From Nocardioidaceae bacterium (GTDB lineage: Bacteria > Actinomycetota > Actinomycetes > Propionibacteriales > Nocardioidaceae), in contig CP076053.1 of assembly GCA_018672315.1 (NCBI GenBank), positions 2,653,827 through 2,717,826 on the forward strand: a DNA stretch of 64,000 nt, written 5' to 3'. The notes beneath the pieces are model-generated. The model was not told the DNA's origin. It saw only the letters and a program-made list of their open reading frames with translations, and did no database searches. Both the position numbers and the translations under genes were made by a program. Shown piece by piece: positions 30,325 to 56,817 of the stretch. Each line of letters opens with the position of its first letter. Positions within the stretch are counted from its first letter, which is position 1.

Positions 30325-30996
30325 GTGGGCGATCGGACGATGCCGTCCCCGCTCGGCGGCGAGGTGACGTACGCGGACCGGACGGTCTCGGTCCTGCGGC
30401 AGATGATCCTCGAGGGCCAGCTCGCCTCCGGTGAGCGACTCAACGAGGTGCACCTCGCCCAGGCGCTGGGCATCAGCCGCGGTCCTCTGCGCGAGGCGAT
30501 GCGGCGGCTCAGCAGCGAGGGCCTGCTGAACCTCGTGCCGCACCGCGGGGCGTTCGTGCCGGCCTTCACCGCCGAGCAGCTCTCCGACCTCTACACGCTG
30601 CGCATCGCTCTCGAGACGCACGCCGCCCGCTTGGTGGCCGAGTCGGGCGACGCCTCGAGCCTCGAGCCTCTCGTGAGCGAGGTCGACGGGGCGGCCTCGG
30701 TGCTCGCCGACGGCGACGCCGCCTATCCCTCCGACCGCGACTTCCACCGGGTGCTCGTGCAGCTCTCGGGCAGTACTGCCCTCGTGGAGGCCGCCGAGGC
30801 GACGTCGGCCCGCATCAGGCTGGCGCGGTCACGATCGGCCAGCCAGCCGGCACGGGCCCGCGAGGCGGTGGCGGAGCACCGCGACATCGTCGACGCCCTC
30901 TCGGCAGGGGACGCCGAGGCGGCCGTACGCCTCCTGCGTCGTCACCTGCTGAACTCCCTCGACAACGCGATCGCCCTCATCGACGCGCAGACCTGA
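30325..30996 (+). CDS. GntR-family regulator, FCD subfamily
   Basis: A 223-residue regulator with an N-terminal winged HTH (LRQMILEGQLASGERLNEVHLAQALGISRGPLREAMRRLSSEGL) and a C-terminal FCD helical ligand domain with the metal-binding pattern Asp/His (SDRDFHRVL, AEHRDIVDAL). It probably responds to a carboxylic acid. GTG 30325 with GGAGG at 30312-30316 sets the start. It overlaps the 3' end of mftF tail to tail by 20 bases. It is a second GntR near the mycofactocin region (another is at 48557) and may control part of it. Confidence 0.85.
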   Translation: MGDRTMPSPLGGEVTYADRTVSVLRQMILEGQLASGERLNEVHLAQALGISRGPLREAMRRLSSEGLLNLVPHRGAFVPAFTAEQLSDLYTLRIALETHAARLVAESGDASSLEPLVSEVDGAASVLADGDAAYPSDRDFHRVLVQLSGSTALVEAAEATSARIRLARSRSASQPARAREAVAEHRDIVDALSAGDAEAAVRLLRRHLLNSLDNAIALIDAQT

Positions 30997-32482: not shown

Positions 32483-33246
32483 GGCCTGAAGCCGCCGTCG
32501 GCGTGCACGTCCGAGGCGTGGAAGACCGCGCCGGCCGGGGAGCAGGCGTGGGCGATGACGGCGGCGACCTCCGCGGGCGCGAGGACGCGGCCGAGGTCCT
32601 GCTGCGCGACCAGCGTCGCGACGTCCACGCCGTAGAGCCCTGCGGTCTCGGCCAGCATCGCGGTGTCGGTGGATCCGGGGGAGACCGCGCACGCCGTGAT
32701 CCCGGTGCCGCGCAGGTCCGCGGCGAGCCCCTTCACGAGACCGACCACGGCGTGCTTGACGGTGCTGTAGCCCGCGAGGTGGAACAGGCCGTGGTGACCG
32801 GCGGCCGAGGCGACGGCCACGAAGCGCGCACGCTCGGGACTCGGGCTGCGCAGCATCGCGGGGATCGCCGCCGCGGCCAGGTTCCACACGCCGCGCACGT
32901 CGACGTCCCACAGGTCCTGCAGGTCGGAATCGGCGGTCTCCCACAGCGGCGCGCCACCGCGGACGACGGCTGCGGCGCCGACGGCGACGTCGAGGCGTCC
33001 CCAGCGGTCAGTCGCGAGATCCACCGCCGTCTCGAGCGCCGACCGGTCGCGGACGTCGGCGACGACCGGCACGACCGAATCACCGCCGCGCGCGGCCACC
33101 TGCTCGAGGTCCTCCCGGGTCGCCTGCGGGGACCCCGAGCACACGTCGAGCGCGACCACGGCACAGCCGTCGGCGACCAGGTGGTCGACCACGGCCGCGC
33201 CGATGCCGCGGGCCGCCCCGGTGACGATCGCGACGCGCTCTGTCAT
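32479..33246 (-). CDS. Mycofactocin-locus short-chain dehydrogenase
   Basis: A 255-residue SDR: cofactor loop TGAARGIG at residues 9-16, Asp in LDVCSG, catalytic Ser in AVASAAG and YxxxK in YSTVKHA. SDRs of this type inside mft loci are thought to use bound NAD(H) recycled by mycofactocin. It lies between mftE and mftF, overlapping mftF by four bases and ten bases after mftE. Substrate unknown. Confidence 0.88.
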   Translation of the reverse strand: MTERVAIVTGAARGIGAAVVDHLVADGCAVVALDVCSGSPQATREDLEQVAARGGDSVVPVVADVRDRSALETAVDLATDRWGRLDVAVGAAAVVRGGAPLWETADSDLQDLWDVDVRGVWNLAAAAIPAMLRSPSPERARFVAVASAAGHHGLFHLAGYSTVKHAVVGLVKGLAADLRGTGITACAVSPGSTDTAMLAETAGLYGVDVATLVAQQDLGRVLAPAEVAAVIAHACSPAGAVFHASDVHADGGFRP

Positions 33247-33256
33247 CGACCGCCCC

Positions 33257-33925
33257 TCACGCCGTCAGGCGACGGGCCGCGTCCGTCACGTCCGCCACCA
33301 TCGCGCGCAGCACCCCGAGGCCCTCCTGCGCCGACGCGCCGGCGGGGTCGCCCAGCACGCCGTTGGCGGAGACGGCGGCGACGCCCCCGGACATCATCGC
33401 GGGCAGGATCTCCGCGAGCGGACTGCAGTTGCCGGCCTCGGCACGGTCCAGTCGTACGGACCCGGGCCGCAGGTGGAGCATCAGCGAGGTCTCCGTACGC
33501 CCTGCGTGCAGGTCGACCTCCTCGGTGGCGCACGCGACCCACGCCACCCGCCGACCCTCCATGCCGAGCGTTTCGACGGCCGCGCGCAGCGCCGTGAGGT
33601 TGCCTCCGTGCGCGTTGACCAGCAGCACGCCGGCCGCCCAGGTCGTCATCGAGCGCACGAGCTCGACGACCTGGTGGGTCAACGCGTCGGTCCCCACCGA
33701 GGAGGTGCCGGCGAAGGACTGGTGCTCCCCGCTCGACCCGTACGCCAGCGGCGGCGCCGCCCACCCGCCGACCTCGCGCGCCGCGGCCTCCGCGACGGCG
33801 ACGGCGATCGTGGTGTCGGTGTCCAGCGGCAGGTGGGGCCCGTGCTGCTCGACCGACCCGACGGGCACCAGGACCAGCGGCCGCCGATCGATCTCCGGCC
33901 ACGTCGCGTCGGCGAGCGAGCTCAC
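33257..33925 (-). CDS. mftE: Mycofactocin precursor peptide peptidase MftE
   Basis: A 222-residue creatininase-fold metalloprotease. Metal ligands are visible in GSVEQHGPHLPLDTDT (Glu, His, Asp) and NAHGGN. MftE removes the leader from the modified MftA, leaving the Val-Tyr-derived moiety AHDP. The start is GTG 33925 in a GTGA overlap with mftD. Confidence 0.9.
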   Translation of the reverse strand: MSSLADATWPEIDRRPLVLVPVGSVEQHGPHLPLDTDTTIAVAVAEAAAREVGGWAAPPLAYGSSGEHQSFAGTSSVGTDALTHQVVELVRSMTTWAAGVLLVNAHGGNLTALRAAVETLGMEGRRVAWVACATEEVDLHAGRTETSLMLHLRPGSVRLDRAEAGNCSPLAEILPAMMSGGVAAVSANGVLGDPAGASAQEGLGVLRAMVADVTDAARRLTA

Positions 33926-35154
33926 GACAGGACGGGTGAGGGGGCGCGGTCCGAGGACACGTGGAAGCCGTCGGGGACGAGCAGGTGCTCGGGGGAGAGG
34001 TCCTGGACCGAGGAGACCCCGAGTCCACGCAGCGCGGAGTCGATGCCTCCGCCGAGGACGTCGATGACGTTCTCGACGCCGGTCTGGCCGTTGGCGGCGA
34101 GACCCCACAGGTACGCGCGGCCGATCATCACCGCCGACGCGCCGAGGGCCAGGGCCTTCACGACGTCGGAGCCCCGGCGTACGCCACCGTCCATCAGCAC
34201 CGTGATGTCCTCGCCCACCGCCTGCGCGATCGGGTGGAGCACCCGGATCGCGGCCGGTGTGCCGTCGATGTTGTTGCCTCCGTGGTTGGAGACCGAGATC
34301 GCGTCGACGCCCGCGTCCACCGCGCGTCGCGCGTCGTCGACCCGGCACACGCCCTTGAGGACGAACGGGGTCCCGCTGATCTCGTGCCAGGTCGCTGCCA
34401 TCCACGCGACGTCCTCCCACGACGGCGGCGGCGTGGTCATCCACTCGTAGTACGCGCCGAAGAAGGTCGGGCCGACAGACTCCTGGGGCGGGGCGAGGTT
34501 CGGGGCCGTCAGGTCCGGGATCTGGCCGGACCGACCGAAGCGGTACATCCAGCGCGCCTTGGTCGCCACCTGCGGGGCCATCCGCACCATCGTCCTCAGG
34601 TCGACCTTCTCGGGGATCTCGGGCGAGCCCCAGTCACGACCCATCGAGAAGGACCAGTCGAGCGTCGCGATCAGCCCGATCACGCCGGCGCGGTGGGCCC
34701 GCTGCATGCGCTGGATCATGGTGTCGCGGTCACCGGTCCAGTACATCTGGAAGTACGTCTGGGCGCCGGTGGCGGTGACCTCCTCCACCGACTTCGACGC
34801 GAAGTTCGACAACCCCATGATCGTGCCCCGGGCCGCAGCGGCCCGGGCGACGGCGACCTCCCCGTCCGGGTGCACCGCCTGCACGCCCGTGGGGCTGATG
34901 AGCACCGGAAGCGACACGTCCGTGCCGAGGATCCGGGTCTGCGTCGAGCGCTCCGCGGCGTGGCCTGCGACGAGGGGCAGCAACCCTATCTCGGTGAAGG
35001 CCGACTCGTTGTCGCTTATCGTCTGGCCGCGCTCCGAGCCCGCGACGAGCGCGCCGTACACGGGAGCGGGCAGGCGCTTGCGCGCCCGGCGCTGGGCGAC
35101 GGCCACGGACTCGAACCAGGGGTTCTGCTTCCAGGGGTTCGTCGGCTTCTTCAT
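33922..35154 (-). CDS. mftD: Mycofactocin FMN-dependent oxidase MftD
   Basis: A 410-residue alpha-hydroxyacid-dehydrogenase-fold (LldD-like) flavoprotein. The FMN and substrate region reads GVCRVDDARRAVDAG and SNHGGNNIDGTP; the two Asn replace the Arg-Gln of lactate oxidases, as usual for MftD. It oxidatively deaminates AHDP to premycofactocin. It overlaps mftC by four bases and mftE by four. Confidence 0.92.
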   Translation of the reverse strand: MKKPTNPWKQNPWFESVAVAQRRARKRLPAPVYGALVAGSERGQTISDNESAFTEIGLLPLVAGHAAERSTQTRILGTDVSLPVLISPTGVQAVHPDGEVAVARAAAARGTIMGLSNFASKSVEEVTATGAQTYFQMYWTGDRDTMIQRMQRAHRAGVIGLIATLDWSFSMGRDWGSPEIPEKVDLRTMVRMAPQVATKARWMYRFGRSGQIPDLTAPNLAPPQESVGPTFFGAYYEWMTTPPPSWEDVAWMAATWHEISGTPFVLKGVCRVDDARRAVDAGVDAISVSNHGGNNIDGTPAAIRVLHPIAQAVGEDITVLMDGGVRRGSDVVKALALGASAVMIGRAYLWGLAANGQTGVENVIDVLGGGIDSALRGLGVSSVQDLSPEHLLVPDGFHVSSDRAPSPVLS

Positions 35155-36452
35155 GAGCAGCAGCCCTTCGTCGCGCAGGAATCGGTGGTGGGATCGAACC
35201 CGGCCAGCGGGCTCTCGGCGCAGGCACTGGCCGGTGGTCGGGTCAGCAGCTTCAGCATCACCGGCTGGTTCCGCGTCGGCGCGGCCTTGGAATGGTCCTG
35301 GCTCGAGGCGGGGATCACCCGGTCACCCGCCAGTGCCTGCTCGCCGTAGCCCTGGACGCACTCGGGGTCGGGTCCGTCGAGGGGGAGCCCGGTGAAGAAC
35401 TTGGCGGCCATGCAGCCGCCGCGGCAGGAGTCGAAGAACGCACAGGAGGCGCAGGCGCCACCGGTCTGGGGGGAACGCAGCTCGGTGAACAGCTCGGAGG
35501 TCTGCCAGACCGCCTGGAAGCCGCCGTCGGTGAGCAGGTTGCCCGCCAGGAACTCGTCGTGGATCGCGAAGGGGCAGGCGTACACGTCCCCGATGGGGTC
35601 GATCAGGCACACGACGCGACCGGCACCGCACAGGTTGAGACCCGGCAGAGCCTCGCCGAACGCGGCGAGGTGGAAGAACGAGTCGCCGGTCAGGACGCCC
35701 TCGCCCTTGGCCATGAGCCAGTCGTACAGCTCGCGCTGCTGGTGGGGGAGGGGGTGCAGCTCGTCCCACACGTCCGCGCCGCGACCGCTCGGGCGCAGCC
35801 GGGTCAGGCGCAGGGTCGCACCGAACCGGTCCGCGAGCGCCTGGAACTCGTCCAGCTGGCCGATGTTCTGCCGGGTGCAGACCACCGAGATCTTGGCGTC
35901 GGTGAAGCCGGCGTCCTGGAGGTTCTGCAGCGCCGTGAGGGCCATGTCGTACGAGCCGGGGCCCCGCACGTAGTCGTTGACCTCCGCGGTCGCCCCGTCG
36001 AGGGAGATCTGCACGTCGACGTACCCGTTGCAGGCCGGGGAAGCGAGGAACGCGGCGCGCTCGGGGGTCAGACGTGCCCCGTTGGTGGAGAACTTCACCC
36101 CGACCTGGTGGTCGATCGCGTACTGCAGCAGGTGCCAGAAGTCGGGCCGGATGGTGGGCTCGCCACCGCCGATGTTGACGTAGAAGACCTGCATCCGCTG
36201 CAGCTCGTCGATGACCGCCTCGCACTGCTCGGTGGTGAGCTCGCGCGGATCCCGTCGTCCGCTGCTCGACAGGCAGTGTGCGCACTCGAGGTTGCAGGCG
36301 TAGGTGAGCTCCCAGGTCAGGCAGATCGGAGCGTCGAGGCCGAGCTCGAACTGCTCCACGAGCGTGCCGCCGGTCGGTCGCGCAGGCGGGGCGGTCGGAG
36401 CGGTCCGAGCGGTGAGGGCGGTCGGGGCCGGCCGGGTGGGCGTGATGGTCAT
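35151..36452 (-). CDS. mftC: Mycofactocin radical SAM maturase MftC
   Basis: A 433-residue radical SAM/SPASM protein. The SAM cluster is Cys53-x3-Cys57-x2-Cys60. The C-terminal SPASM Cys set is visible in NLCGAG, DVYACPFAI, GGACASCAFFDSCRGGCM and DPECV. MftC decarboxylates and cross-links the C-terminal Val-Tyr of MftA. The extra C-terminal tail ends in CATKGCCS. Overlaps mftB by four bases. Confidence 0.93.
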   Translation of the reverse strand: MTITPTRPAPTALTARTAPTAPPARPTGGTLVEQFELGLDAPICLTWELTYACNLECAHCLSSSGRRDPRELTTEQCEAVIDELQRMQVFYVNIGGGEPTIRPDFWHLLQYAIDHQVGVKFSTNGARLTPERAAFLASPACNGYVDVQISLDGATAEVNDYVRGPGSYDMALTALQNLQDAGFTDAKISVVCTRQNIGQLDEFQALADRFGATLRLTRLRPSGRGADVWDELHPLPHQQRELYDWLMAKGEGVLTGDSFFHLAAFGEALPGLNLCGAGRVVCLIDPIGDVYACPFAIHDEFLAGNLLTDGGFQAVWQTSELFTELRSPQTGGACASCAFFDSCRGGCMAAKFFTGLPLDGPDPECVQGYGEQALAGDRVIPASSQDHSKAAPTRNQPVMLKLLTRPPASACAESPLAGFDPTTDSCATKGCCS

Positions 36453-36724
36453 GCGTTCTCCTCGGAGCTGCGGGGCCGGATCATGTCGGTGCGGGCGAGC
36501 CCGGCGAGCGCCTCGGCGTACGCCTCGTGCTGGGCGGGCGGCACGCCGGCCGCCTCGAGGGCTCCACGGACGTCGGGCTGGTCGCCCAGGGCCTGGACCA
36601 CGGCCACCAGCTCGGGCCGCTTGAGGAACGTGAGCTTGCGGTTGCCGAAGTGGTACGCGAGCGCCCCGAAGGGCTCGGGTCGCAACGCCACCGAGGGCGA
36701 CAGGGTCCAGGCCTGGTCGAGCAT
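36449..36724 (-). CDS. mftB: Mycofactocin peptide chaperone MftB
   Basis: A 91-residue RiPP-recognition (PqqD-like) protein with the opening LDQAWTLSPSVALRPEPFGALAYHF and LTFLKRPEL typical of MftB. It binds the MftA leader and presents it to MftC. The ATG at 36724 overlaps the mftA stop (TGATG-type overlap), so translation is coupled. Confidence 0.92.
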   Translation of the reverse strand: MLDQAWTLSPSVALRPEPFGALAYHFGNRKLTFLKRPELVAVVQALGDQPDVRGALEAAGVPPAQHEAYAEALAGLARTDMIRPRSSEENA

Positions 36725-36840
36725 CAGTAGACGCCGCACATGCCGTCGATCGAGACCTCCTCGATGAGCATCTCGCTCGTCACGGTCTCCTCCGGCGACG
36801 CGGTGGGGGTGTCGGCTGAGGTGGGGGTGTCGGGGTTCAT
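36724..36840 (-). CDS. mftA: Mycofactocin precursor peptide MftA
   Basis: A 38-residue peptide read from ATG 36840 to TGA. It ends with the diagnostic core IDGMCGVY; the terminal Val-Tyr becomes the redox cofactor. The leader is acidic with TPTSADTPTASPEE, and MLIEEVSIDG is the MftB/MftC recognition stretch. The ribosome site GAGAGG precedes it. It is short and easily missed by gene callers. Confidence 0.95.
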   Translation of the reverse strand: MNPDTPTSADTPTASPEETVTSEMLIEEVSIDGMCGVY

Positions 36841-36855
36841 GGCGATCCTCTCTCG

Positions 36856-36873
36856 CAAACTGTTGACAGTTTG
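36856..36873. promoter_or_regulatory. MftR box 1 in the mftA/mftR divergent region
   Basis: A perfect dyad of two 8-base arms around TG: CAAACTGTTGACAGTTTG. It sits 16-33 bases upstream of mftA and 68 bases upstream of mftR. The same core recurs at 37550-37565 and 40773-40784. Confidence 0.8.
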
Positions 36874-36940
36874 GACACCGTAACTGCACCCGGGGCAACA
36901 ACGGAAGGCCTAGATTGCACGCGTGTCGAGGAGGTAGCCG

Positions 36941-37522
36941 GTGGGACGACCTGAAGTGACCAGCCACGACGCCATCGAGCAGGCGGCGTTCAGGCTCTTC
37001 GCCGAGCGCGGCTTCGAGGCGACGACGCTGGAGGACATCGCGGCGGAGGTGGGCGTCGGTCGACGCACGCTCTTCCGCTACTTCCCGTCGAAGAACGACA
37101 TCGCCTGGGGGCGCTTCGACCAGACGCTCGACGCGCTCCGCGAGCTGCTCGCCGCGATCCCGGACGACGTGCCCGTGCTCGAGGCGGTGGGTCGCGGCAT
37201 CGTCGACTTCAACCGGTTCCCGGCGCACGCGCGACCGCCACACGTCGACCGGATGCGGCTGATCCTCACCACACCGGCTCTGCAGGCCCACTCCGCCCTG
37301 CGGTACGCCGAGTGGCGTCAGGTCGTCGCCGACGACGCCGCGCGGCGCCTGGGGCGTGCTCCCCACGAGCTGGAGCCGCAGCTGGTGGGGCACGTCGCGC
37401 TCGCCGTTGCGCTGACGGCGTACGAGCTCTGGCTGCAGGACCCTGATGTCTCGCTCATCGACCTGCTGGTGGACGGACTGTCGGTGCTCGCCCTGCGGCC
37501 CGGCGGGCGCGCCGGCGCGTGA
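36941..37522 (+). CDS. mftR: Mycofactocin locus TetR-family regulator MftR
   Basis: A 193-residue TetR protein. The N-terminal HTH is EAAFRLFAERGFEATTLEDIAAEVGVGRRTLFRYFPSKNDIAW (near residues 12-60; shown in short form because of the reader limit: key residues GFEATT, VGVGRRTLFRYF). Known MftR proteins bind acyl-CoA ligands and repress mft genes. GTG 36941 has GAGGAGG at a good distance. It is divergent from mftA with a palindromic operator between them. Confidence 0.88.
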   Translation: MGRPEVTSHDAIEQAAFRLFAERGFEATTLEDIAAEVGVGRRTLFRYFPSKNDIAWGRFDQTLDALRELLAAIPDDVPVLEAVGRGIVDFNRFPAHARPPHVDRMRLILTTPALQAHSALRYAEWRQVVADDAARRLGRAPHELEPQLVGHVALAVALTAYELWLQDPDVSLIDLLVDGLSVLALRPGGRAGA

Positions 37523-37549
37523 GGGAAGAGGGCCCACCGACACCAGGCG

Positions 37550-37565
37550 CAACTGTTGACAGTTG
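37550..37565. promoter_or_regulatory. MftR box 2, promoter of the lyase/hydantoinase operon
   Basis: CAACTGTTGACAGTTG, a perfect dyad with TG at the centre. It contains TTGACA (37556-37561), a consensus -35; a weak -10 (CACACT, 37579-37584) follows after 17 bases. Binding would block RNA polymerase. Confidence 0.75.
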
Positions 37566-37675
37566 ACATGTGACCGCGCACACTGAGGATCTCAGTCCGC
37601 ACCCGGTCTGCGCTCGACCGGATCCGTCGCCGCCCCCCCTCGTGCGACGTCTCCGCCGACCCTCGGAAAGGTCAG

Positions 37676-38578
37676 ATGACCCGCATGTCCAGCCCCTCCT
37701 CGCTCAGCGCGCTGCTCGCGCGACCCGAACGACCGCTGCTCCTGCCCGGTGCGCCCAACGCGCTGACGGCGCGCGTGATCGAGCAGGCGGGGTTCGAGGC
37801 CGTGTACGTCTCCGGCGCCGGCGTCACCAACACCTACCTCGGGATGCCCGACCTCGGACTGATGTCCGCGACCGAGCTCGCCGGGCACGTGGCCGCGATG
37901 GCCGACAGCGTCGAGATCCCGCTCGTCGTCGACGCCGACACCGGCTTCGGCAACGCGTTGAACGTGCAGCGCACCGTGCGTCAGCTCGAGCGGGCGGGAG
38001 CGGCGGCGATCCAGCTCGAGGACCAGGTCAGCCCCAAGAAGTGCGGACACTTCGAGGGCAAGGGCGTCGTCACCGTCGAGGAGATGGTCGGCAAGGTGAA
38101 GGCCGCCGTCGACGCCCGCCACAGCGACGACACCCTGATCATCGCGCGCACCGACGCGCTGGCGGGGGAGGGCATCGACGCCGCGATCGACCGCGCCGGC
38201 GCCTACGCCGAGGCCGGCGCGGACATCCTCTTCGTCGAGGCCCCGCGTACCCACGAGCAGATGGCACGGGTGGTGCGGGACGTGCCCGGCATCCACATGG
38301 CCAACATGGTCGAAGGGGGCCTGACACCCCTGACCTCGCGCGAGGAGCTCGGCCAGCTGGGCTTCTCGATCGCGCTGTACGCGAACGCGGCCATGCGTGG
38401 AGCCGTCGCCGGCATGCGGCAGGTGATGGAGCACCTCATCGATCACGGTGACACGCTGGACGCCGGCGACCTGATGATCTCGTGGGCGGACCGCCAGGAG
38501 CTCGTGCGCAAGCCCGAGTTCGATGCACTCGACCGGCGCTACGCCGCCGACGTCACCGACCGTGAGGAGCGAGCATGA
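37676..38578 (+). CDS. Isocitrate lyase/PEP mutase superfamily lyase
   Basis: A 300-residue (beta/alpha)8 lyase. It has the metal Asp pattern DADTGFGN and the catalytic loop KKCGHF with Cys, which favours C-C lyases (methylisocitrate or dimethylmalate lyase-like) over decarboxylases. It would cleave a 2-hydroxy-dicarboxylate to pyruvate or glyoxylate plus an acid. ATG 37676 has GAAAGG upstream. ATGA-overlapping with the hydantoinase gene. First gene of the box-2 operon. The precise substrate is open. Confidence 0.85.
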   Translation: MTRMSSPSSLSALLARPERPLLLPGAPNALTARVIEQAGFEAVYVSGAGVTNTYLGMPDLGLMSATELAGHVAAMADSVEIPLVVDADTGFGNALNVQRTVRQLERAGAAAIQLEDQVSPKKCGHFEGKGVVTVEEMVGKVKAAVDARHSDDTLIIARTDALAGEGIDAAIDRAGAYAEAGADILFVEAPRTHEQMARVVRDVPGIHMANMVEGGLTPLTSREELGQLGFSIALYANAAMRGAVAGMRQVMEHLIDHGDTLDAGDLMISWADRQELVRKPEFDALDRRYAADVTDREERA

Positions 38579-39993
38579 CCACCACCACCGTCCACGACAC
38601 ACGCCTGACCGGTGGCCGGGTCTACCTGCACGGCTCGGGGGTCTCCCCGGTCGACCTGCTCATCACCGACGGCCGCGTCGCCGGGATCGTCTCGCCCAGC
38701 TCGCAGGCCCGGGCGCGTGAGGTCGTCGACCTGGGTGGCAAGCTCGTGCTCCCCGGGGCGATCGACCCGCACGTCCACCTCGGCAAGGACATCCGCGTGC
38801 CGCGCGACCCCGACGACGCGCGCCTCGAGACGGCCTCGGCCGTCAACGGCGGTGTCACCACGATGCTCGTCTACCTCATGAGCGGGGAGCCGTACGAGAC
38901 CGTCGTGCCCGGCGCCCAGGCCGTGATGGAGCAGGACTCCTTCACCGACTTCGGCTTCCACATCGTCGTCGGCTCCGACGACCACGTGCACGACATCCCG
39001 GCCTACATCCGTGAGTTCGGGGTCTCCAGCTTCAAGTTCTTCATGAACTTCAAGGGCGACGAGGGTGCCTACCTCGGCCTGCCCGGCAACGACGACGGCT
39101 ACATGTACGACGTGCTCGGCACCGCCGCCGACGCCGGCGCGATGATCAACCCCCACCCGGAGAACATCGAGCTCGTCTGGAAGCTGAAGAACCGTCCGAT
39201 CGACGAGTCCCGTGGCCCGCTGAGCGCCTGGAACCAGTCGCGCCCCTCCTTCGTGGAGGCGGAGGCGGTGCAGCGAGTGGCGTACATGGCCCAGATCACC
39301 GGGGCCTCGGTGTACGCCGTCCACACCAGCAGCAAGCTGGCGCTCGACGCCATGCAGCGTCAGCGGGAGTCCTACGAGAACCTGTTCGTCGAGACGTGCA
39401 CGCAGTACCTCACGCTGACCACGGAGTCCGGCTGCGGCACCTACGGCAAGGTCAACCCGCCGATCCGTGAGCGGGAGGACCTCGAGACGCTCTGGCTCGG
39501 CCTCGCCGACGGCCGGGTCGACAGCGTCGGGTCGGACCACAACCACCGTCACCGGACCGCCAAGGAGAAGGACATCTGGACGGCGTCCGCCGGGTTCCCC
39601 GGCACCGGCGGCGTGCTGCCCCTGACCCTGAGCGAGGGCCTGCGGCGGGGGGTGTCGATCGACCGGCTGGTCGACGCGACGTCGACCCGCGCGGCGAAGC
39701 TCTTCGGCATGTATCCCCGCAAGGGGACCATCCGCGTCGGCTCCGACGCCGACCTCGCGGTGGTCGACCTCGACGGCAGCTACACGATCAACGCGTCGAC
39801 CCAGTACTCGGGCGCGGAGTACACGCCGTGGGAGGGCACGGAGGTGCCGCTGCGCGTGGTGCACACCCTGGTGCGTGGTCGGTTCGCGATGCGGGACGGC
39901 GTCCTCGCCGAGAAGACCACCGGTCAGTACCTGCGGCGTGAGCACAGCGGTGCGACCGCCCTCGCCGCGGCCGAGAAGGAGGCGGAGGCATGA
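38575..39993 (+). CDS. Dihydropyrimidinase/D-hydantoinase-type amidohydrolase
   Basis: A 472-residue cyclic amidohydrolase. Metal ligands and the carboxylated Lys region are seen: DPHVHLG (HxH), FKFFMNF (Lys), INPHPEN and VHTSS (His), and GSDHNH (Asp). It opens a cyclic imide or ureide ring. Overlaps both neighbours by ATGA. The partner is a cysteine hydrolase instead of a classical carbamoylase. The pathway is probably ring opening of a heterocycle (inference). Confidence 0.88.
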   Translation: MTTTTVHDTRLTGGRVYLHGSGVSPVDLLITDGRVAGIVSPSSQARAREVVDLGGKLVLPGAIDPHVHLGKDIRVPRDPDDARLETASAVNGGVTTMLVYLMSGEPYETVVPGAQAVMEQDSFTDFGFHIVVGSDDHVHDIPAYIREFGVSSFKFFMNFKGDEGAYLGLPGNDDGYMYDVLGTAADAGAMINPHPENIELVWKLKNRPIDESRGPLSAWNQSRPSFVEAEAVQRVAYMAQITGASVYAVHTSSKLALDAMQRQRESYENLFVETCTQYLTLTTESGCGTYGKVNPPIREREDLETLWLGLADGRVDSVGSDHNHRHRTAKEKDIWTASAGFPGTGGVLPLTLSEGLRRGVSIDRLVDATSTRAAKLFGMYPRKGTIRVGSDADLAVVDLDGSYTINASTQYSGAEYTPWEGTEVPLRVVHTLVRGRFAMRDGVLAEKTTGQYLRREHSGATALAAAEKEAEA

Positions 39994-40664
39994 GCGACCT
40001 CATCGACGAGACCACCAGGCAGCGCTACGACGCGGCCGGCTTCGGCCGGCCGGTCGGTCTCGGGTCCCGGCCAGGGCTGCTCATCATCGACGTGCAGTAC
40101 CGGACGACCGGCACCGAGCCACGTCCCTTCGACGAGGCGATCCAGGAGTTCACCACCAGCGTCGGAGAGGCCGCGTGGGACGCGGTGGGCAACATCAAGC
40201 GCCTCCTCGAGCTCTTCCGCTCCCGGGACTGGCCGGTGCTCTACCCGTACGTCGCGCCCAAGAAGTCCTTCGACGCCGGAGCGCTCGGGGCGAAGGTGCC
40301 GGGCATCATGGACATCCCCGACAAGGGCTATGAGTTCCACCCCGACATCGCCCCGCGAGAGGGCGAGATCCTGCTGCCGAAGCGTCATCCGAGCGCGTTC
40401 TTCGGCACCCCGCTGCTGAGCTACCTGGTGCAGGCGGGCATCGACTCCCTCGTCGTCACCGGGTGCTCCACCTCCGGATGCGTCCGGGGGAGTGCGGTCG
40501 ACGCGTTCTCCTACAACTACAAGGTCGCAGTGCCCTCGGACGCGGTGTACGACCGCAGTCCGCTCGTCCACGAGGTCAACCTCTTCGACATGGGACAGAA
40601 GTACGCCGACGTCTCCACCACCGACGAGCTCCTGAGCGCTCTGGAGGGCGTTCCCGGACGCTGA
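39990..40664 (+). CDS. Cysteine hydrolase (isochorismatase/N-carbamoylsarcosine amidase-like)
   Basis: A 224-residue hydrolase with the Asp-Lys-Cys triad: LLIIDVQYRT, LPKRHPSAF and VTGCSTSGCVR. These act on N-carbamoyl amino acids, ureidoacids, maleamate or similar. Following a hydantoinase, hydrolysis of a ring-opened N-carbamoyl or amide acid is the natural reading. ATGA overlap with the preceding gene; last gene of the operon. Confidence 0.85.
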   Translation: MSDLIDETTRQRYDAAGFGRPVGLGSRPGLLIIDVQYRTTGTEPRPFDEAIQEFTTSVGEAAWDAVGNIKRLLELFRSRDWPVLYPYVAPKKSFDAGALGAKVPGIMDIPDKGYEFHPDIAPREGEILLPKRHPSAFFGTPLLSYLVQAGIDSLVVTGCSTSGCVRGSAVDAFSYNYKVAVPSDAVYDRSPLVHEVNLFDMGQKYADVSTTDELLSALEGVPGR

Positions 40665-40772
40665 GACCGGCAGGCCGACAGACCGGTGCGCGGGGCCTCG
40701 AGAGGTCCGGCGCAGCGGCCTATCGGCGTACCTGAACGGCGCAGGAAATCCACGCGAAAACGCCAAGTGCAC

Positions 40773-40784
40773 ACTGTTGACAGT
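40773..40784. promoter_or_regulatory. MftR box 3, promoter of the 14-gene catabolic operon
   Basis: Core ACTGTTGACAGT, a 12-base dyad. TTGACA (40777-40782) is followed by TAGCGT (40800-40805) after exactly 17 bases, a good sigma-70-type promoter. The palindrome covers the -35. The nearest gene starts at 40843. Confidence 0.8.
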
Positions 40785-40842
40785 TAGTAGTTGACGACCT
40801 AGCGTGATCCGAGTCATAGCCCATCGACAGAGAGGCACCGGC

Positions 40843-41214
40843 ATGCATGCGACGTCATGGACCGAGCTGCCCGAGACCGAAGGTCTCCCGAACAACTTCC
40901 GGCGGGCCGTCGCCGGCCGCGAGATCAGCGTCAACCGGATCACCTGGGTGCACCCCACCGAGCTGCCGCCGCACGTGCACGACGACGCCGAGCAGGCGCT
41001 GGTCATGCTCGAGGGGCGCATCCGGTTCAGCATCGACGGCACCGAGATGGAGCTCGCCGCCGGCGACGTGGCCATCGTGCCCCGGCACGCGGTCCACGGC
41101 GGGCGCAGCATCGAGGGCGAGGCCGTCTTCATCGAGGTCTTCAGCCCGATGCGGGTCGACCTGCTCCCGGGCTTCCTCGGCGGAGCATCGATGCCGACGG
41201 GGGAGCAGCCATGA
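40843..41214 (+). CDS. Cupin domain protein
   Basis: A 123-residue single cupin. Motif 1 includes PPHVHDDAEQALVMLEGRIRF (His-His-Glu type) and motif 2 GDVAIVPRHAVHGGRS (His). Metal binding is likely. Role may be a small isomerase, dioxygenase or ligand sensor. ATG 40843 has GAGAGG upstream; an upstream in-frame GTG/ATG at 40804 overlaps the -10. First gene of the 14-gene run; ATGA overlap with the MBL gene. Confidence 0.8.
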   Translation: MHATSWTELPETEGLPNNFRRAVAGREISVNRITWVHPTELPPHVHDDAEQALVMLEGRIRFSIDGTEMELAAGDVAIVPRHAVHGGRSIEGEAVFIEVFSPMRVDLLPGFLGGASMPTGEQP

Positions 41215-42074
41215 CCCTGCAGCAGATCAGCAGCCGCGTGCACGTCGAGGTCGCGCACCTGGGCAGCAACAACTCGCTCATCGTCGACCCCGCCGGCCTG
41301 ATCCAGGTCGACAGCCCGCACCGGCCGACCGACGCCGTCAGGTGGGCCGAGACCGCCGCGCGTTTCGGTGAGACCCGGTTCGTCGTCAACACCGACCACC
41401 ACCCCGACCACACCATCGGCAACTTCTGGCAGCGCGGCGAGGTCGTCGCCCACCGCGGAACCCGCACCCGTCTGCTGACCGAACCCCCCTCGGACCAGTA
41501 CCTGAAGGACCTGTTCTCGCGCATCGACCCCGAGGCCGTGGCCTGGGTCGACGACTACGAGGTGAAGGTGCCGAACGTCGTCTTCAGCGACCAGCTCGAC
41601 CTGCACGTCGGCGACGTCGCCCTGGAGCTCACCTTCCGCCCCGGCCACACCGCCAACAGCCTGCTGGCGTGGTTCCCCGGCGACGCCGTCATCTTCACCG
41701 GCGACATCGTCTGCGAGGCGGGGTTGCCCTCGTTCCAGGACTCCCGGCTCGTCGACTGGTTCGACGCCATCGACGCCGTCAGCGCGTACGACTTCGAGTT
41801 CCTCGTGCCCGGGCACGGCGAGGTCGCGGACCGTGCGGTCGTCGACCGCTACCGCCAGCTCGGTCGCGAGGTCGTCGCCGAGGTGGCCGCCACCATCGAC
41901 GCGGGTCACTCCAAGGACCAGGCCTGCGACGAGGTGCGCTTCGAGGACAACATCCACGTCGACACCGACGACTACGTCGGCTACCCCGACGCACTGGTCG
42001 AGATGTTCCAGCGCCGGTCCATCGCGCGCATCTACGACGACCTCGTCGCCAGCCCCGAGCTCGCGACCCGCTGA
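41211..42074 (+). CDS. MBL-fold metallohydrolase
   Basis: A 287-residue metallo-beta-lactamase-fold protein with metal motif TDHHPDHTIGN (HxHxDH-like with Asp), GHTANS, and a later TGDIVCEAG and PGHGEV. It is close to quinoprotein-relay or lactonase-type MBL proteins. It probably hydrolyses a lactone, ester or thioester. It overlaps the cupin by ATGA and precedes the binding-protein gene by 50 bases. Confidence 0.82.
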   Translation: MTLQQISSRVHVEVAHLGSNNSLIVDPAGLIQVDSPHRPTDAVRWAETAARFGETRFVVNTDHHPDHTIGNFWQRGEVVAHRGTRTRLLTEPPSDQYLKDLFSRIDPEAVAWVDDYEVKVPNVVFSDQLDLHVGDVALELTFRPGHTANSLLAWFPGDAVIFTGDIVCEAGLPSFQDSRLVDWFDAIDAVSAYDFEFLVPGHGEVADRAVVDRYRQLGREVVAEVAATIDAGHSKDQACDEVRFEDNIHVDTDDYVGYPDALVEMFQRRSIARIYDDLVASPELATR

Positions 42075-42124: not shown

Positions 42125-43270
42125 ATGCAGACCAACAAGCTCACCGCCTTGGCGGCGGCGTCGGTGGCGACGCTGCTGCTCGGCGCCTGCGGCAGCTCGT
42201 CCGGCGGAGCCGGAGCGGATGCCGGCTCGGGCACCGACACGGCCGCCGCGGAAGCCGCCCAGCAGGCCGTCGACGCCGCGAAGGACATCCCGTCCGTCGA
42301 CGACCTGGGTGAACCGATCGACGTCTCGAGCCTCGAGGGCCAGACGATCTACTCGATCCCCATCGACAGCAAGGCCGAGTTCTACTCCGTGGGCGAGGAG
42401 GCGATGAAGAGCGTCGCCGAGGAGGCGGGCGTCAACTTCCGCACCTTCCCCTCGGACGGCACGCAGACCTCCTACCAGCAGGGCATCCAGCAGGCCATCA
42501 ACGACGACGCCGGTGCGATCCTGCTGAACGGCCCGCTGGCCGAGACGCTCGGCCCGCAGATCGACGCCGCCAAGGAGGCCGGCATCCCGGTCATCCCGCT
42601 CCACCTGAGCGACAGCGAGGGCGAGGGGACCCCGGGCCTGGAGTACGAGGCCTTCGCCCCCTTCAACCAGGCCGCCCGTCTGTTCACGCAGTACGCCATC
42701 GCCGACCTGGAGGGCGAGCCCGTCCACGCGCTGGTGATCGAGGTCTCCGAGACCGGACCCTCGGAGGGCATGGTGCAGACCATCCAGGACACCCTCGAGA
42801 ACGAGGGGCCCGCGGGGTCGACGACCACGGTCGTCAACGCGCCCGTCGCCCAGTGGTCGACCCAGGTGCAGGGCCTGGTGCAGTCCGCGCTCCTCAAGGA
42901 CCCCGAGATCAACGCGGTGCTGCCGATCTACGACTCGATCTCGCTGTACGCCGCGCCCGGCATCGCCCAGGCTGCCGGTGGACGCGACGTGCAGATCTAC
43001 ACCTTCAACGGCACGCCCGCCATCCTGAAGATGATCGAGGACGGCAGTGTCGCGGTGAACGTCGCGGAGAGCCCCGACTGGGTCGCGCACGTCAACATCG
43101 ACGTCGCCTTCCGCGCCATGCTCGGTGCGGACCCGATCCCGGGTGAGACCGGCCCGCTCCGCCTCGTCGACGAGTCCAACGTCGCCGACTTCGGCAACCC
43201 GCCGTCGCCCTCGGAGGGCTTCGGCGACGAGTACCCCGACGCCTTCTTCGAGCTCTGGGGGCTGCAGTAA
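42125..43270 (+). CDS. Sugar-type ABC transporter substrate-binding lipoprotein
   Basis: A 381-residue periplasmic-binding-protein type 1 (ribose/RbsB-like) lipoprotein. The signal peptide has lipobox LLLGAC with Cys22 as lipidation site. The two-lobe PBP fold follows (GQTIYSIPIDSKAEFYSVGEEAM, later AAKEAGIPVIPLHL, DPEINAVLPIYDS). TCTGGAGG sets ATG 42125. It feeds the ATPase and permease immediately downstream. Substrate unknown, likely a polyol or small hydroxylated compound. Confidence 0.88.
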   Translation: MQTNKLTALAAASVATLLLGACGSSSGGAGADAGSGTDTAAAEAAQQAVDAAKDIPSVDDLGEPIDVSSLEGQTIYSIPIDSKAEFYSVGEEAMKSVAEEAGVNFRTFPSDGTQTSYQQGIQQAINDDAGAILLNGPLAETLGPQIDAAKEAGIPVIPLHLSDSEGEGTPGLEYEAFAPFNQAARLFTQYAIADLEGEPVHALVIEVSETGPSEGMVQTIQDTLENEGPAGSTTTVVNAPVAQWSTQVQGLVQSALLKDPEINAVLPIYDSISLYAAPGIAQAAGGRDVQIYTFNGTPAILKMIEDGSVAVNVAESPDWVAHVNIDVAFRAMLGADPIPGETGPLRLVDESNVADFGNPPSPSEGFGDEYPDAFFELWGLQ

Positions 43271-43273
43271 GTC

Positions 43274-44839
43274 ATGACCGAGACCCAGTCGGTCCCGGCC
43301 AGCGGGGCGGGCACGCCCGCCCCGCTGCTCCGGGTCTCCTCCCTCCGCAAGGCCTTCAACGGCGTCCCCGCCCTGCGGGGTGTCGACCTCGACGTCCGCG
43401 CCGGTGAGGTGCACGGACTGCTCGGCGCCAACGGCAGCGGCAAGTCCACCCTCATCAAGGTGCTCGCCGGCTTCCACGACGCCGACGGCGGCGTGGTCAG
43501 CATCCACGGGCGGGAGCTGCGGAGCCCCTTCGGCTCCCGCGGCCTCCGCGAGGAGGGGATGGGCTTCGTGCACCAGGACCTGGGGCTGGCCCCGGCCGGC
43601 ACGGTGCTGGAGCACATGGCCCTGGACTCGACGGGCAGCGCACGCGGCTTCGTACGCGTCGACTGGTCCGCGGAGCGGGCCCGCGTCCGCGAGCTGCTCG
43701 AGCGGTTCGAGGTCGACGTCGACGTCGACGCCACGATCGACATGCTCACCCCGGTGCAGCGCGCCATGGTCGCCGTGGTGAGGGCCGTCGGCGCCCAGGA
43801 GCTCACGGGTGGGAAGCGCAGCCAGATCCTGGTGCTCGACGAGCCCACCGTGTTCCTGCCCCGCCACGAGGTGGGGCTCCTCTTCGACCTGCTCGACCGG
43901 CTGCGCTCGCGTGGTGACGCGGTGCTGCTCGTCAGCCACGACCTCGACGAGATCCTGCAGGTGACCGACCGGGTGACCGTCTTCCGCAACGGGGAGACCG
44001 CCGGCACCCGCGACACCGCCGGCTCGACCCGCGACGACCTCGTGCAGCTGATCCTCGGCACCGGGAACGACGCCGCGGTCAAGCTGACGAGCACGACGAC
44101 CCAGGATCTCGAGCCCGTGCTGTCAGCGCGAGGTCTCACGGGGGAGCGGCTGCGCGACCTGGATCTCGACCTCTACCCCGGCGAGGTCGTCGGTGTCACC
44201 GGCCTGGCCGGGTCGGGCTTCGAGGAGCTGCCCGAGCTGCTCTACGGAGCACGGGCCGCCCGCGCGGGCACGGTGCTCCTCGACGGGGTCGCCACCGACC
44301 GGCCCCGGCCCGCGGACTCGATGCGCCGCGGCGTCGTCCTCATCCCCGCGGACCGCAAGGGGCAGGGCGGCGTCCTGGACCTCACGGTCCTGGAGAACAT
44401 GTCGCTGCCGTTCCTGACCGGGCGTGCCAACGGCTTCCTCGTCGACTGGACGGCGATCCGGGCCCAGGCGCAGGCCGCGTGCGAGCGGCTGAACGTGCAG
44501 CCGCCGATGCCGGCCGCGCAGCTGGGCCACCTCAGTGGCGGCAACCAGCAGAAGGCGCTGCTCGGCAAGTGGCTCGACACCGATCCCAGGGTCATGCTGC
44601 TGAGCGAGCCGACCCAGGGCGTCGACATCGGCGCCCGCCGCGAGATCTTCCGCCTCATCCGGGCCGCCATCGCCGACGGCATGTCGGTGCTGTGCGCGAC
44701 CTCGGACTACGAGCAGCTCGTCGAGATGGCCGATCGCGTCATCGTCATCGACCAGGGTCGCGCCCGTGCCGAGGTGCACGGCGAGGACATCACCAAGGAC
44801 GCCCTCGCGTCCGCCGTCTACGCAGAGGAAGCATCATGA
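43274..44839 (+). CDS. Sugar ABC transporter ATPase with two nucleotide-binding domains
   Basis: A 521-residue RbsA/MglA-type duplicated ATPase. Domain 1 has Walker A GANGSGKST and Walker B VLDEPTVF but only a degenerate signature (TPVQRAMVAVV). Domain 2 lacks a full Walker A (GLAGSGFEEL), as usual in this class, but has LSGGNQQKALLGKWL. Starts three bases after the binding-protein stop and overlaps the permease by ATGA. Confidence 0.9.
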   Translation: MTETQSVPASGAGTPAPLLRVSSLRKAFNGVPALRGVDLDVRAGEVHGLLGANGSGKSTLIKVLAGFHDADGGVVSIHGRELRSPFGSRGLREEGMGFVHQDLGLAPAGTVLEHMALDSTGSARGFVRVDWSAERARVRELLERFEVDVDVDATIDMLTPVQRAMVAVVRAVGAQELTGGKRSQILVLDEPTVFLPRHEVGLLFDLLDRLRSRGDAVLLVSHDLDEILQVTDRVTVFRNGETAGTRDTAGSTRDDLVQLILGTGNDAAVKLTSTTTQDLEPVLSARGLTGERLRDLDLDLYPGEVVGVTGLAGSGFEELPELLYGARAARAGTVLLDGVATDRPRPADSMRRGVVLIPADRKGQGGVLDLTVLENMSLPFLTGRANGFLVDWTAIRAQAQAACERLNVQPPMPAAQLGHLSGGNQQKALLGKWLDTDPRVMLLSEPTQGVDIGARREIFRLIRAAIADGMSVLCATSDYEQLVEMADRVIVIDQGRARAEVHGEDITKDALASAVYAEEAS

Positions 44840-45870
44840 CGACCACCTCACCGCCCCGCACCGACGAGAAGAGCACCGGCACGGCGACCACGAAGCGTCC
44901 TGCCGAGCCCGAGCGTTTCGCGCTCCTGGGCGTCTGGGCGCTGCTGATCATCGTCTTCAGCCTCCTGGTGCCCGACACGTTCCCCACGACGGCGAACGTC
45001 TCGAACATGCTCGGGTCGCAAGCGGTGCTGCTGATCCTGGCCCTCGGCCTGATCATCCCGCTGCGCACCGGCGACCTGGACCTGTCGATCGCCTCGACCT
45101 TGAACCTGGCGGCCGTCGTGGTCGCGGTGCTCAACGTCAACAAGGGGTGGAACATCTGGGCGGCCGTGCTCGCAGCGATCGTCGCCGCCCTGCTGGTCGG
45201 CATCGTGAACGGTCTGATCGTGACCGTCTTCGAGATCGACCCCCTCATCGTGACGCTGGGCACCGGCACCGTGGTGCAGGGCCTGATCTACCTGATCTCC
45301 AGCTCGGTCACCATCACCGGCGTCGACCGCACGCTGTCCGAGGTGATGCTGACCCAGCCGTTCCTGTCCATCCCCCTGGACTTCTACTACGCCGTCGCGC
45401 TGTGCGTGGTCATCTGGTACGTCTTCGACCACACGGCAGTGGGGCAGCGACTGCTCTTCGCCGGGCAGAGCCGCGACGTCGCCCGGCTCAACGGCGTCAA
45501 CGTGCCGGGACTGCGCCTGGGGGCACTGACCGCCTCGGCCGGCATCGCCGGCGTCGCCGGCGTCGTCTACACCGGCACGACCGCCAGCGCCGACCCGGTC
45601 TCAGGCGCCGCGTTCCTGCTGCCGGCCTTCGCCGCCTGCTTCCTCGGGTCGACGGTCCTGCGCATCGGCCGCTTCAACCCGTGGGGCACGCTCATCGCCG
45701 TCTACTTCCTCGTCACCGGCATCACCGGCCTGCAGCTCATGGGCGCCCAGCAGTACGTCCAGCAGCTCTTCTACGGCGGGGCGCTCGTCATCGCGGTCGT
45801 CATGTCGAAGGTCGTCAAGAGCCGCGGCGAGCGGCGACGCCGCGCCGAGGTGCGCGACGCACCCGCCTGA
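44836..45870 (+). CDS. Sugar ABC transporter permease
   Basis: A 344-residue RbsC-like permease with about nine to ten helices after a 30-residue polar head. The conserved loop between helices (LIIPLRTGDLDLSIASTLNL) carries the family EAA-like GxxDLS motif, and VARLNGVNVPGLRLGALTASAG follows. The Arg-rich C-terminus is cytoplasmic. Single permease, so it likely forms a homodimer. Confidence 0.9.
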   Translation: MTTTSPPRTDEKSTGTATTKRPAEPERFALLGVWALLIIVFSLLVPDTFPTTANVSNMLGSQAVLLILALGLIIPLRTGDLDLSIASTLNLAAVVVAVLNVNKGWNIWAAVLAAIVAALLVGIVNGLIVTVFEIDPLIVTLGTGTVVQGLIYLISSSVTITGVDRTLSEVMLTQPFLSIPLDFYYAVALCVVIWYVFDHTAVGQRLLFAGQSRDVARLNGVNVPGLRLGALTASAGIAGVAGVVYTGTTASADPVSGAAFLLPAFAACFLGSTVLRIGRFNPWGTLIAVYFLVTGITGLQLMGAQQYVQQLFYGGALVIAVVMSKVVKSRGERRRRAEVRDAPA

Positions 45871-45921
45871 TCCAGCCACCTCTCCGTCACCACCCCAAGC
45901 AGAGCCTCGAAAGGAACCACC

Positions 45922-50388: not shown

Positions 50389-50393
50389 CACCC

Positions 50394-56795: not shown

Positions 56796-56817
56796 CCACG
56801 AGCTCCGGAGGCACCGC

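What the first reader, a model, noticed from the sequence alone, without database searches (positions are those of the whole stretch)
36856..40805. Three MftR-type palindromes define a mycofactocin regulon, two over consensus -35 elements
The dyad core ACTGTTGACAGT occurs at 36859-36870, 37552-37563 and 40773-40784, and I saw it nowhere else in the window. Box 1 is between mftA and mftR, box 2 precedes the lyase/hydantoinase operon, and box 3 precedes the 14-gene operon. In boxes 2 and 3 the centre supplies TTGACA, and box 3 has TAGCGT exactly 17 bases on. This suggests one TetR repressor coordinates cofactor synthesis with catabolic genes. The operator being an occluded -35 is directly seen; MftR as the binder is inferred.
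Basis: partly seen in the sequence, partly recalled or inferred. Interest (0 to 1): 0.85.

Follow-up and report, generated by a model that had tools for sequence, protein, structure and literature searches.

The report
GntR operator shared by mycofactocin genes
Three identical DNA switches next to a mycofactocin gene cluster most likely belong to GntR-type regulators of a neighbouring catabolic pathway, not to the cluster's own regulator MftR, so this bacterium appears to tie the making of a rare redox cofactor to the pathway that uses it.

Summary
The three dyads are real: ACTGTTGACAGT lies exactly where stated, three times in the 3.6-Mb genome, with no one-mismatch copy. The name 'MftR-type' is wrong. 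The footprinted MftR operator is a different dyad (PMC8728441); a matching block is found in 75 of 117 other mycofactocin promoters and in this one, beside box 1. The box instead follows two FCD/GntR paralogues, GntR2 (30358-30996) and GntR1 (48557-49255). In 341 family genomes all 13 with GntR2 of at least 45% identity carry the exact box, against 14 of the other 328; mycofactocin genes show no association (11 of 107 against 16 of 234). Four genomes without MftB match or MftR over cut-off have the box beside GntR2 genes. In other families, one genome has the box with GntR2 and no GntR1 seen, another with GntR1 and no GntR2 hit. Boxes 2 and 3 keep -35/-10 spacing in seven genomes. Box 1 seems to add mycofactocin synthesis to a catabolic regulon holding a mycofactocin-type alcohol dehydrogenase; three Aeromicrobium mft promoters have near-boxes elsewhere. 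Binding is untested.

The parts
36857..36872 (.). Box 1, AAACTGTTGACAGTTT, between the MftR-type operator block and the mftA start
   Evidence: Exact core. Box at <=2 mismatches in 4 of 7 mft promoters of GntR1 genomes and 0 of 111 others.
37551..37564 (.). Box 2, AACTGTTGACAGTT, with TTGACA 37556-37561 as -35 (17 nt to CACACT 37579-37584) and an overlapping second GTTGAC core at 37562-37567
   Evidence: the same arrangement with 18 nt precedes the orthologous operon in six relatives.
40773..40784 (.). Box 3, ACTGTTGACAGT, with TTGACA 40777-40782 as -35 (17 nt to TAGCGT 40800-40805) and a second GTTGAC core at 40790-40795
   Evidence: TAGCGT at 17 nt here and 18 nt in six relatives, and a GT-NN-AC second core in the same place in all seven (read by eye).
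36876..36906 (-). MftR-type operator block TTCCGTTGTTGCCCCGGGTGCAGTTACGGTG (dyad about 36884-36898, -10-like TACGGT 36877-36882)
   Evidence: Profile from 75 of 117 other mft promoters, this genome left out; score 32.5 here, best of 3000 random promoters 4.5.
36724..36840 (-). mftA, mycofactocin precursor peptide, ends IDGMCGVY
   Evidence: translation.
36449..36724 (-). mftB
   Evidence: TIGR03967 over cut-off.
35151..36452 (-). mftC, radical SAM maturase
   Evidence: TIGR03962 over cut-off.
33922..35154 (-). mftD
   Evidence: TIGR03966 over cut-off.
33257..33925 (-). mftE
   Evidence: TIGR03964 over cut-off.
32479..33246 (-). mycofactocin-coupled SDR
   Evidence: NF040491 over cut-off.
30977..32482 (-). 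mftF glycosyltransferase (start chosen by me, uncertain)
   Evidence: TIGR03965 over cut-off.
36941..37522 (+). mftR, TetR-family regulator
   Evidence: TIGR03968 244.3 bits, cut-off 224.9.
30358..30996 (+). GntR2, FCD/GntR regulator, proposed binder of the boxes
   Evidence: PF00392 and PF07729; orthologues of >=45% identity in 13 of 341 genomes, all 13 with the exact box.
48557..49255 (+). GntR1, FCD/GntR regulator inside the box-3 operon, second proposed binder
   Evidence: PF00392 and PF07729; orthologues of >=71% identity in exactly the 7 of 341 genomes with two or more exact boxes.
37676..38578 (+). PrpB-like lyase, first gene of the box-2 operon
   Evidence: TIGR02317 293.8 bits, below its cut-off; PDB relatives include 2,3-dimethylmalate lyase.
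38575..39993 (+). hydantoinase/dihydropyrimidinase-like amidohydrolase
   Evidence: TIGR02033, below cut-off.
39990..40664 (+). isochorismatase-fold amidohydrolase
40843..41214 (+). cupin, first gene of the box-3 operon
   Evidence: PF07883.
41211..42074 (+). metallo-beta-lactamase-fold hydrolase
   Evidence: all matches below cut-off.
42125..44839 (+). sugar-type ABC importer: binding protein (42125-43270) and double ATPase (43274-44839)
   Evidence: PF13407, PF00005.
44766..46001 (+). probable permease (start uncertain; no Pfam match)
   Evidence: Position in the operon only; no hit; an orthologue is present in all eight family GntR1 operons.
45922..47031 (+). NDMA-dependent (mycofactocin-type) alcohol dehydrogenase
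   Evidence: TIGR03989 459.7 bits, cut-off 440.
47086..48564 (+). aldehyde dehydrogenase
   Evidence: PF00171.
49252..56053 (+). rest of the box-3 operon: FMN oxidoreductase (49252), SDR (50394), SDR (51128), FAD_binding_2 (51904), two MmgE/PrpD proteins (53268, 54674)

Best explanation
The three dyads are operators of FCD-type GntR regulators, GntR2 and probably also its paralogue GntR1. They are not MftR sites. At boxes 2 and 3 the dimer covers the -35 hexamer and keeps RNA polymerase off the lyase/hydantoinase operon and the 14-gene operon until a pathway intermediate releases it. At box 1 the same dyad lies just after the predicted mftA -10, over the likely start site, next to MftR's own separate operator. 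The mycofactocin genes therefore answer both to MftR and to the GntR regulator of a pathway whose operon encodes a mycofactocin-type alcohol dehydrogenase. Shown by sequence: the boxes, their link to GntR2/GntR1, the conserved promoter spacing and the separate MftR-type block. Inferred: binding by GntR, repression rather than activation, the inducer, and the effect at box 1.
For: (1) 13 of 13 family genomes with GntR2 (>=45% identity, a threshold set after seeing the hits) have the exact box, against 14 of the other 328 (Fisher p 1.9e-16, not corrected for kinship). With all 17 genomes that have any hit at E<=1e-30 it is 14 of 17 against 13 of 324 (p 4.8e-15). (2) GntR1 orthologues of >=71% identity are in exactly the 7 genomes with two or more exact boxes. 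(3) 21 of 36 exact-box places in the 341 genomes lie at GntR2/lyase, cupin-operon or mft promoters of this regulon. (4) The box is beside GntR2 or lyase genes in G298, G216, G179 and G193, which have no MftB match and no MftR over cut-off. (5) Outside the family, G396 has three exact boxes on the same operons with GntR2 and no GntR1 seen; G428 has one exact box about 0.5 kb before the lyase gene and GntR1 with no separate GntR2 hit. A Patulibacter MAG has a 1-mismatch box about 95 bp before the lyase match. (6) GntR1 and GntR2 largely share the helix-turn-helix pattern RLNEV..A..LGxSRGPxREA. The box fits the FadR-subfamily form NyGT-N(2-3)-ACNy with 2-nt spacing (PMC4494728 passages). (7) -35/-10 spacing at boxes 2 and 3 is 17-18 nt in seven genomes. 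(8) A separate MftR-type block is found in most mft promoters searched, this one included.
Against: No binding or expression data exist for these proteins. Raw counts of the exact box in the family are not above control (36 places against 37 for the reversed pattern, counted by eye); only its placement is informative. Three of seven GntR1 genomes (G104, G059, G131) have no box at mft, although in G131 mft is as close to the regulon as in the three Aeromicrobium genomes that have one, so control of mft is not general. In this genome GntR2 has no box of its own, while 9 of 12 other family genomes with GntR2 have one directly upstream. In G147 the exact box stands before the cupin operon and not before GntR2; in G179 and G193 it is about 1.4 kb before the lyase gene. 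More distant GntR2-like proteins mostly lack a box nearby: of 15 such loci outside the family (36-40% identity), 13 have none at <=2 mismatches within the locus. In G428 the box is at control frequency overall (14 hits against 13 at <=1 mismatch), so its single exact copy could be chance. Box 2 and 3 -10 hexamers match only 3 of 6 here, and in G100, G104 and G059 a better -10 (TATAGC) stands at 16 nt.
Confidence: 0.85

Rival explanations
1. MftR binds all three boxes and runs a mycofactocin regulon.
For: Box 1 lies between mftA and mftR, and TetR proteins bind dyads (general knowledge).
Against: The published MftR operator differs. An MftR-type block is present here and in 75 of 117 other mft promoters. 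Box presence does not follow mft (11 of 107 against 16 of 234, p 0.29). The box stands beside GntR2 or lyase genes in genomes with no MftB match and no MftR over cut-off. The MftR recognition helix is the same as in relatives without the box.
Confidence: 0.04
2. Only one of the two paralogues (GntR2 alone or GntR1 alone) binds the boxes in this genome, and the other has another operator.
For: GntR2 is present in all 13 family genomes and in G396, where no GntR1 was seen. GntR1 is the one encoded within the box-3 operon.
Against: The two largely share the helix-turn-helix pattern, and each occurs without a hit to the other in some genome that carries the box (for GntR1 alone this rests on the single copy in G428).
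Confidence: 0.35
3. The dyad is only a conserved strong -35 element and no operator.
For: TTGACA is at the -35 position of boxes 2 and 3 in seven genomes.
Against: The A-A flank and the symmetric ACTG/AGT letters recur around TTGACA in most of the sites listed (the 12 core letters are fixed by the search). Box 1 has no -10 in range in the mftR direction (read by eye). Presence follows GntR2.
Confidence: 0.04
4. At mft the GntR protein activates instead of represses, or the box there serves mftR.
For: In three Aeromicrobium mft promoters the near-box lies on the mftR side, upstream of the MftR-type block.
Against: In this genome box 1 lies just downstream of the predicted mftA -10, a usual place for repression.
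Confidence: 0.2

Closest known systems
MftR and its operator Omft in Mycolicibacterium smegmatis (PMC8728441)
   Same: A dyad with GGCA-N5-TGCC form 5' to mftA; its counterpart is at 36876-36906 here. TetR regulator encoded beside the cluster.
   Different: The boxes of the finding do not resemble it and occur where no MftR over the cut-off is detected.
FadR-subfamily GntR regulators with 2-nt spaced GT..AC operators (PMC4494728 names GntR, HpxS, HypR, MdcY, PrpR, UxuR)
   Same: FCD domain, palindrome NyGT-NN-ACNy, added cores nearby, regulator gene in or near a catabolic operon.
   Different: Core TGTTGACA with CTG/CAG flanks; two paralogues; a RiPP cofactor cluster among the apparent targets.
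PhnR-type GntR regulator (TIGR03338)
   Same: Only NCBIfam match of GntR2 at E<=1e-20.
   Different: 122 bits against a cut-off of 271.5; not a member.
Mycofactocin-type alcohol dehydrogenases (TIGR03989; linked to mycofactocin genomes in PMC3023750, passages)
   Same: A member over the cut-off lies in the box-3 operon.
   Different: Sits with hydantoinase-like, PrpB-like and PrpD-like enzymes in a pathway that I could not name.

Membership tests
MftR operator (Omft) sites | Dyad of form T-N2-GGCA-N5-TGCC-N2-A | tested here: not met
   Boxes are ACTGT-TG-ACAGT; best Omft-profile score of windows overlapping box 1 is -13.
MftR operator (Omft) sites | Conserved at mft promoters across species | tested here: not met
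   Box at <=2 mismatches in 4 of 118 mft promoters; MftR-type block in 75 of 117 others plus this one.
MftR operator (Omft) sites | Bound by MftR in vitro | not testable with these tools
   No binding assay possible.
FadR-subfamily (FCD) GntR operators | Palindrome NyGT-N(2-3)-ACNy | tested here: met
   C-T-GT-TG-AC-A-G, 2-nt spacing; form from PMC4494728 passages. In the narrower form NyGTM-N0-1-KACNy the K (G) is met and the M (T) is not.
FadR-subfamily (FCD) GntR operators | Cognate regulator is GntR plus FCD domain, encoded in or beside the regulated operon | tested here: met
   GntR1 in the box-3 operon; GntR2 at 30358-30996, directly behind a box in 9 of 12 other family genomes with it.
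FadR-subfamily (FCD) GntR operators | Site co-occurs with the regulator across genomes | tested here: met
   13 of 13 against 14 of 328 genomes; repeated outside the family in G396, more weakly in G428.
FadR-subfamily (FCD) GntR operators | Bound by the regulator and released by a ligand | not testable with these tools
   Needs EMSA and a ligand screen.
TIGR03338 PhnR | Score over the curated cut-off | tested here: not met
   122 against 271.5 bits.

The most novel reading that the evidence does not exclude
Mycofactocin synthesis has been recruited, at least twice independently, into a pathway-specific GntR regulon by gaining that regulon's operator beside MftR's operator. Cofactor supply is then switched on by the substrate that needs it as well as by MftR's acyl-CoA signal.
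Probability: 0.55. Interest if true: 0.65.

Novelty: new variant of a known kind. Interest (0 to 1): 0.5.

Why it matters
When and why bacteria make mycofactocin is not well settled; the one control protein described in the passages I read is MftR. The sequence predicts a second, substrate-linked input and gives a defined operator, two candidate regulators and a candidate pathway. It also corrects a misreading that proximity to mftR invites.

Tried and rejected
Rejected: MftR as binder. Rejected: raw abundance of the box as evidence, since the family total (36 places) equals the reversed control (37, counted by eye). Tried: a sigma-70 consensus scan lists no promoter in 36700-40900. Tried: my first search pattern for MftR helices was too strict (26 of 118 loci) and was replaced by tblastn (76 of 118 loci). 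The Omft profile was first built on those 26 loci, then on all; it was scored on the same loci it was built from, this genome being left out. The mft promoter set is 118 loci in 107 genomes: 105 of the 107 family genomes with MftB, plus G018 and G366; G251, G300 and one of five G224 loci were not fetched. G147 (GntR1 60%) and G366 (52%) are counted among the 111 'others'. G428's mft promoter has a 2-mismatch box that coincides with a possible -35 beside the MftR-type dyad; I do not count it as support. Exact boxes not linked to the regulon: 15 of 36 places (G060, G063 at 1042415, G077, G082, G092, G007, G009, G122, G124, G028, G185, G228, G254, G285, G003). Of these, G122, G185 and G028 have weak GntR homologues (34-39% identity) within about 11 kb, and G124 and G003 none in the 18 kb looked at; the other ten were only held against the hit list, which shows no hit near them. 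The GntR searches score only the best few candidates of each genome, so weaker homologues can be missed. The catabolic substrate could not be settled. Papers: PMC8728441 (outline, abstract and passages), PMC4494728 (listing and passages), PMC7176365, PMC11166783 and PMC3023750 (passages; none of the passages seen reports a GntR acting on mft), the rest as search listings only. In those listings I saw no report of a GntR protein at an mft promoter; most subscription papers are not held. No structure prediction was run.
Full report
Observation. The dodecamer ACTGTTGACAGT is present at the three stated places. The whole 3.6-Mb genome holds exactly these three, with no copy at one mismatch.

Genes around it. 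Leftward runs a mycofactocin cluster, mftF, an SDR, mftE, mftD, mftC, mftB and mftA. Divergent from it is mftR, over its family cut-off. Box 2 precedes a PrpB-like lyase, a hydantoinase-like enzyme and an isochorismatase-fold amidohydrolase. Box 3 precedes 14 genes: cupin, MBL-fold hydrolase, a sugar-type ABC importer (binding protein, ATPase, probable permease), a mycofactocin-type NDMA-dependent alcohol dehydrogenase (TIGR03989 over cut-off), aldehyde dehydrogenase, an FCD/GntR regulator (GntR1), an FMN oxidoreductase, two SDRs, an FAD_binding_2 protein and two MmgE/PrpD proteins. A second FCD/GntR regulator, GntR2, lies at 30358-30996, tail to tail with mftF.

MftR has another operator. In M. 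smegmatis the footprinted operator is a 27-bp sequence with the dyad T-N2-GGCA-N5-TGCC-N2-A (PMC8728441, passages). A profile built from the other mft promoters finds a block TTcCnTTtTGGCcctGAGTGCCATTAnTGTG in 75 of 117 and in 0 of 3000 random promoters. This genome, left out of the profile, has it at 36876-36906 on the minus strand, score 32.5 against a random best of 4.5. Box 1 ends 3 bp away from that block and does not match it. The MftR recognition helix is the same here (VGVGRRTLFRYF) as in G131, G104 and G059, whose mft promoters lack the box. The expected MftR site is therefore present and is not the box.

The box follows GntR proteins. In 341 genomes of the family the exact box occurs at 36 places in 27 genomes, no more than the reversed control (37, counted by eye). 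Its placement is what matters. GntR1 orthologues of 71% identity or more exist in seven genomes, exactly the seven with two or more exact boxes. GntR2 orthologues of 45% identity or more exist in 13 genomes; all 13 have the exact box, against 14 of the other 328 (p 1.9e-16, kinship not corrected). The 45% line was drawn after seeing the hits; with every genome that has a hit at E<=1e-30 the count is 14 of 17 against 13 of 324 (p 4.8e-15). Of the four weaker genomes, G140 has a one-mismatch box about 110 bp before its GntR gene, G185 has an exact box elsewhere, and G010 and G086 have none at <=2 mismatches in the locus. Presence of mycofactocin genes shows no association: 11 of 107 against 16 of 234, p 0.29. 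Of the 36 places, 21 lie at the promoters of this regulon: 12 at GntR2 or lyase genes, 8 before the cupin operon, 1 at mftA.

Natural tests. G298, G216, G179 and G193, each given as 100% complete, have the box beside GntR2 or lyase genes. They have no MftB match and no MftR over the cut-off. In G179 and G193 the box is about 1.4 kb before the lyase gene. Outside the family, G396 has three exact boxes and no others in the genome: before the cupin operon, before the lyase operon and upstream of GntR2. No GntR1 stands in its operon, and its mft cluster is on another contig, best box match there 4 mismatches. G428 has GntR1 and no separate GntR2 hit, with one exact box about 0.5 kb before the lyase gene; in that genome hits at <=1 mismatch are at control level (14 against 13), so this case is weaker. 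A Patulibacter MAG has a one-mismatch box about 95 bp before the lyase match. The helix-turn-helix regions of the two paralogues largely share one pattern; G147's GntR1 departs from it and three other proteins differ by one residue. The dyad has the published form of FadR-subfamily operators, NyGT-N(2-3)-ACNy, with 2-nt spacing (PMC4494728, passages).

Promoter logic. At box 3 the TAGCGT element stands 17 nt (this genome) or 18 nt (six relatives) after TTGACA; in G100, G104 and G059 a better hexamer, TATAGC, stands at 16 nt. A second GT-NN-AC core follows the box in all seven (read by eye). At box 2 the spacing is again 17 or 18 nt, to CACAAT, CACACT or AAGAAT. Covering the -35 fits repression. 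This remains an inference, as does the ligand.

Mycofactocin joins the regulon. In 118 mft promoters the box at two or fewer mismatches occurs in 4 of 7 GntR1 genomes (this one exact; G076 one; G100 and G063 two) and in 0 of 111 others. In those four the mft cluster lies beside the box operons (mftB to box 2 about 1.1 kb here, about 6.3 kb in the three Aeromicrobium genomes). In G059 it is 0.4 Mb away and in G104 2.9 Mb along the contig (0.7 Mb the other way if circular), and neither has a box at mft. G131 is an exception: its mft is as close, 6.2 kb, yet has no box. In this genome the box is on the mftA side of the MftR-type block; in the three Aeromicrobium genomes it is on the mftR side. 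This points to separate gains, although old homologous sites that moved cannot be excluded. All eight family genomes with GntR1 (60% identity or more) have both the mycofactocin-type dehydrogenase in the operon and an mft cluster, which gives a reason for joint control.

Names. Genomes G131, G100, G076 and G063 correspond by identical coordinates to Nocardioides caldifontis, Aeromicrobium stalagmiti, Aeromicrobium sp. Root472D3 and Aeromicrobium endophyticum. The family is therefore taken to be Nocardioidaceae (inferred). The genus of the window is not known to me.

Verdict. The MftR reading does not. The sites are best read as operators of a two-paralogue GntR regulon that has annexed the mycofactocin cluster in this lineage and probably in some Aeromicrobium. 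I saw no report of a GntR protein at an mft promoter in the held library (listings). Binding and expression remain untested.

Noticed in passing
30358-30996 and 30977-32482: GntR2 (+) and mftF (-) end tail to tail with about 20 bp of overlap; in six relatives (G131, G100, G076, G063, G104, G059) GntR2 instead sits directly behind box 2, so the mft block appears to have been rearranged between GntR2 and the lyase operon here.
   Followed up: partly
37676-40664 and 53268-56053: A PrpB-like lyase, a hydantoinase-like amidohydrolase, an isochorismatase-fold amidohydrolase (PDB relatives include N-carbamoylsarcosine amidohydrolase) and two MmgE/PrpD proteins could form a route that opens a cyclic imide or similar ring and cleaves the dicarboxylate; the substrate is a guess.
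   Followed up: partly
56118-57474: ArsR-type helix-turn-helix joined to a low-molecular-weight phosphatase domain, followed by a second such phosphatase with its own N-terminal domain; looks like an arsenic-resistance pair.
   Followed up: no
60888-62309: Protein with the Hen1 ligase-Pnkp-associating domain and a methyltransferase domain, i.e. a bacterial RNA-repair Hen1.
   Followed up: no
59690-60283: Pyruvoyl-dependent arginine decarboxylase family protein.
   Followed up: no
L110 (G063:C1:1042415-1042426): An additional exact box in Aeromicrobium endophyticum, far from the regulon; a possible further target or chance.
   Followed up: no
L266 (G028:C1:143000-161000): Exact box with a second TGTCAACAGT stretch nearby and a weak GntR homologue (36% identity) about 1.8 kb away, in a genome without MftB match.
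   Followed up: no
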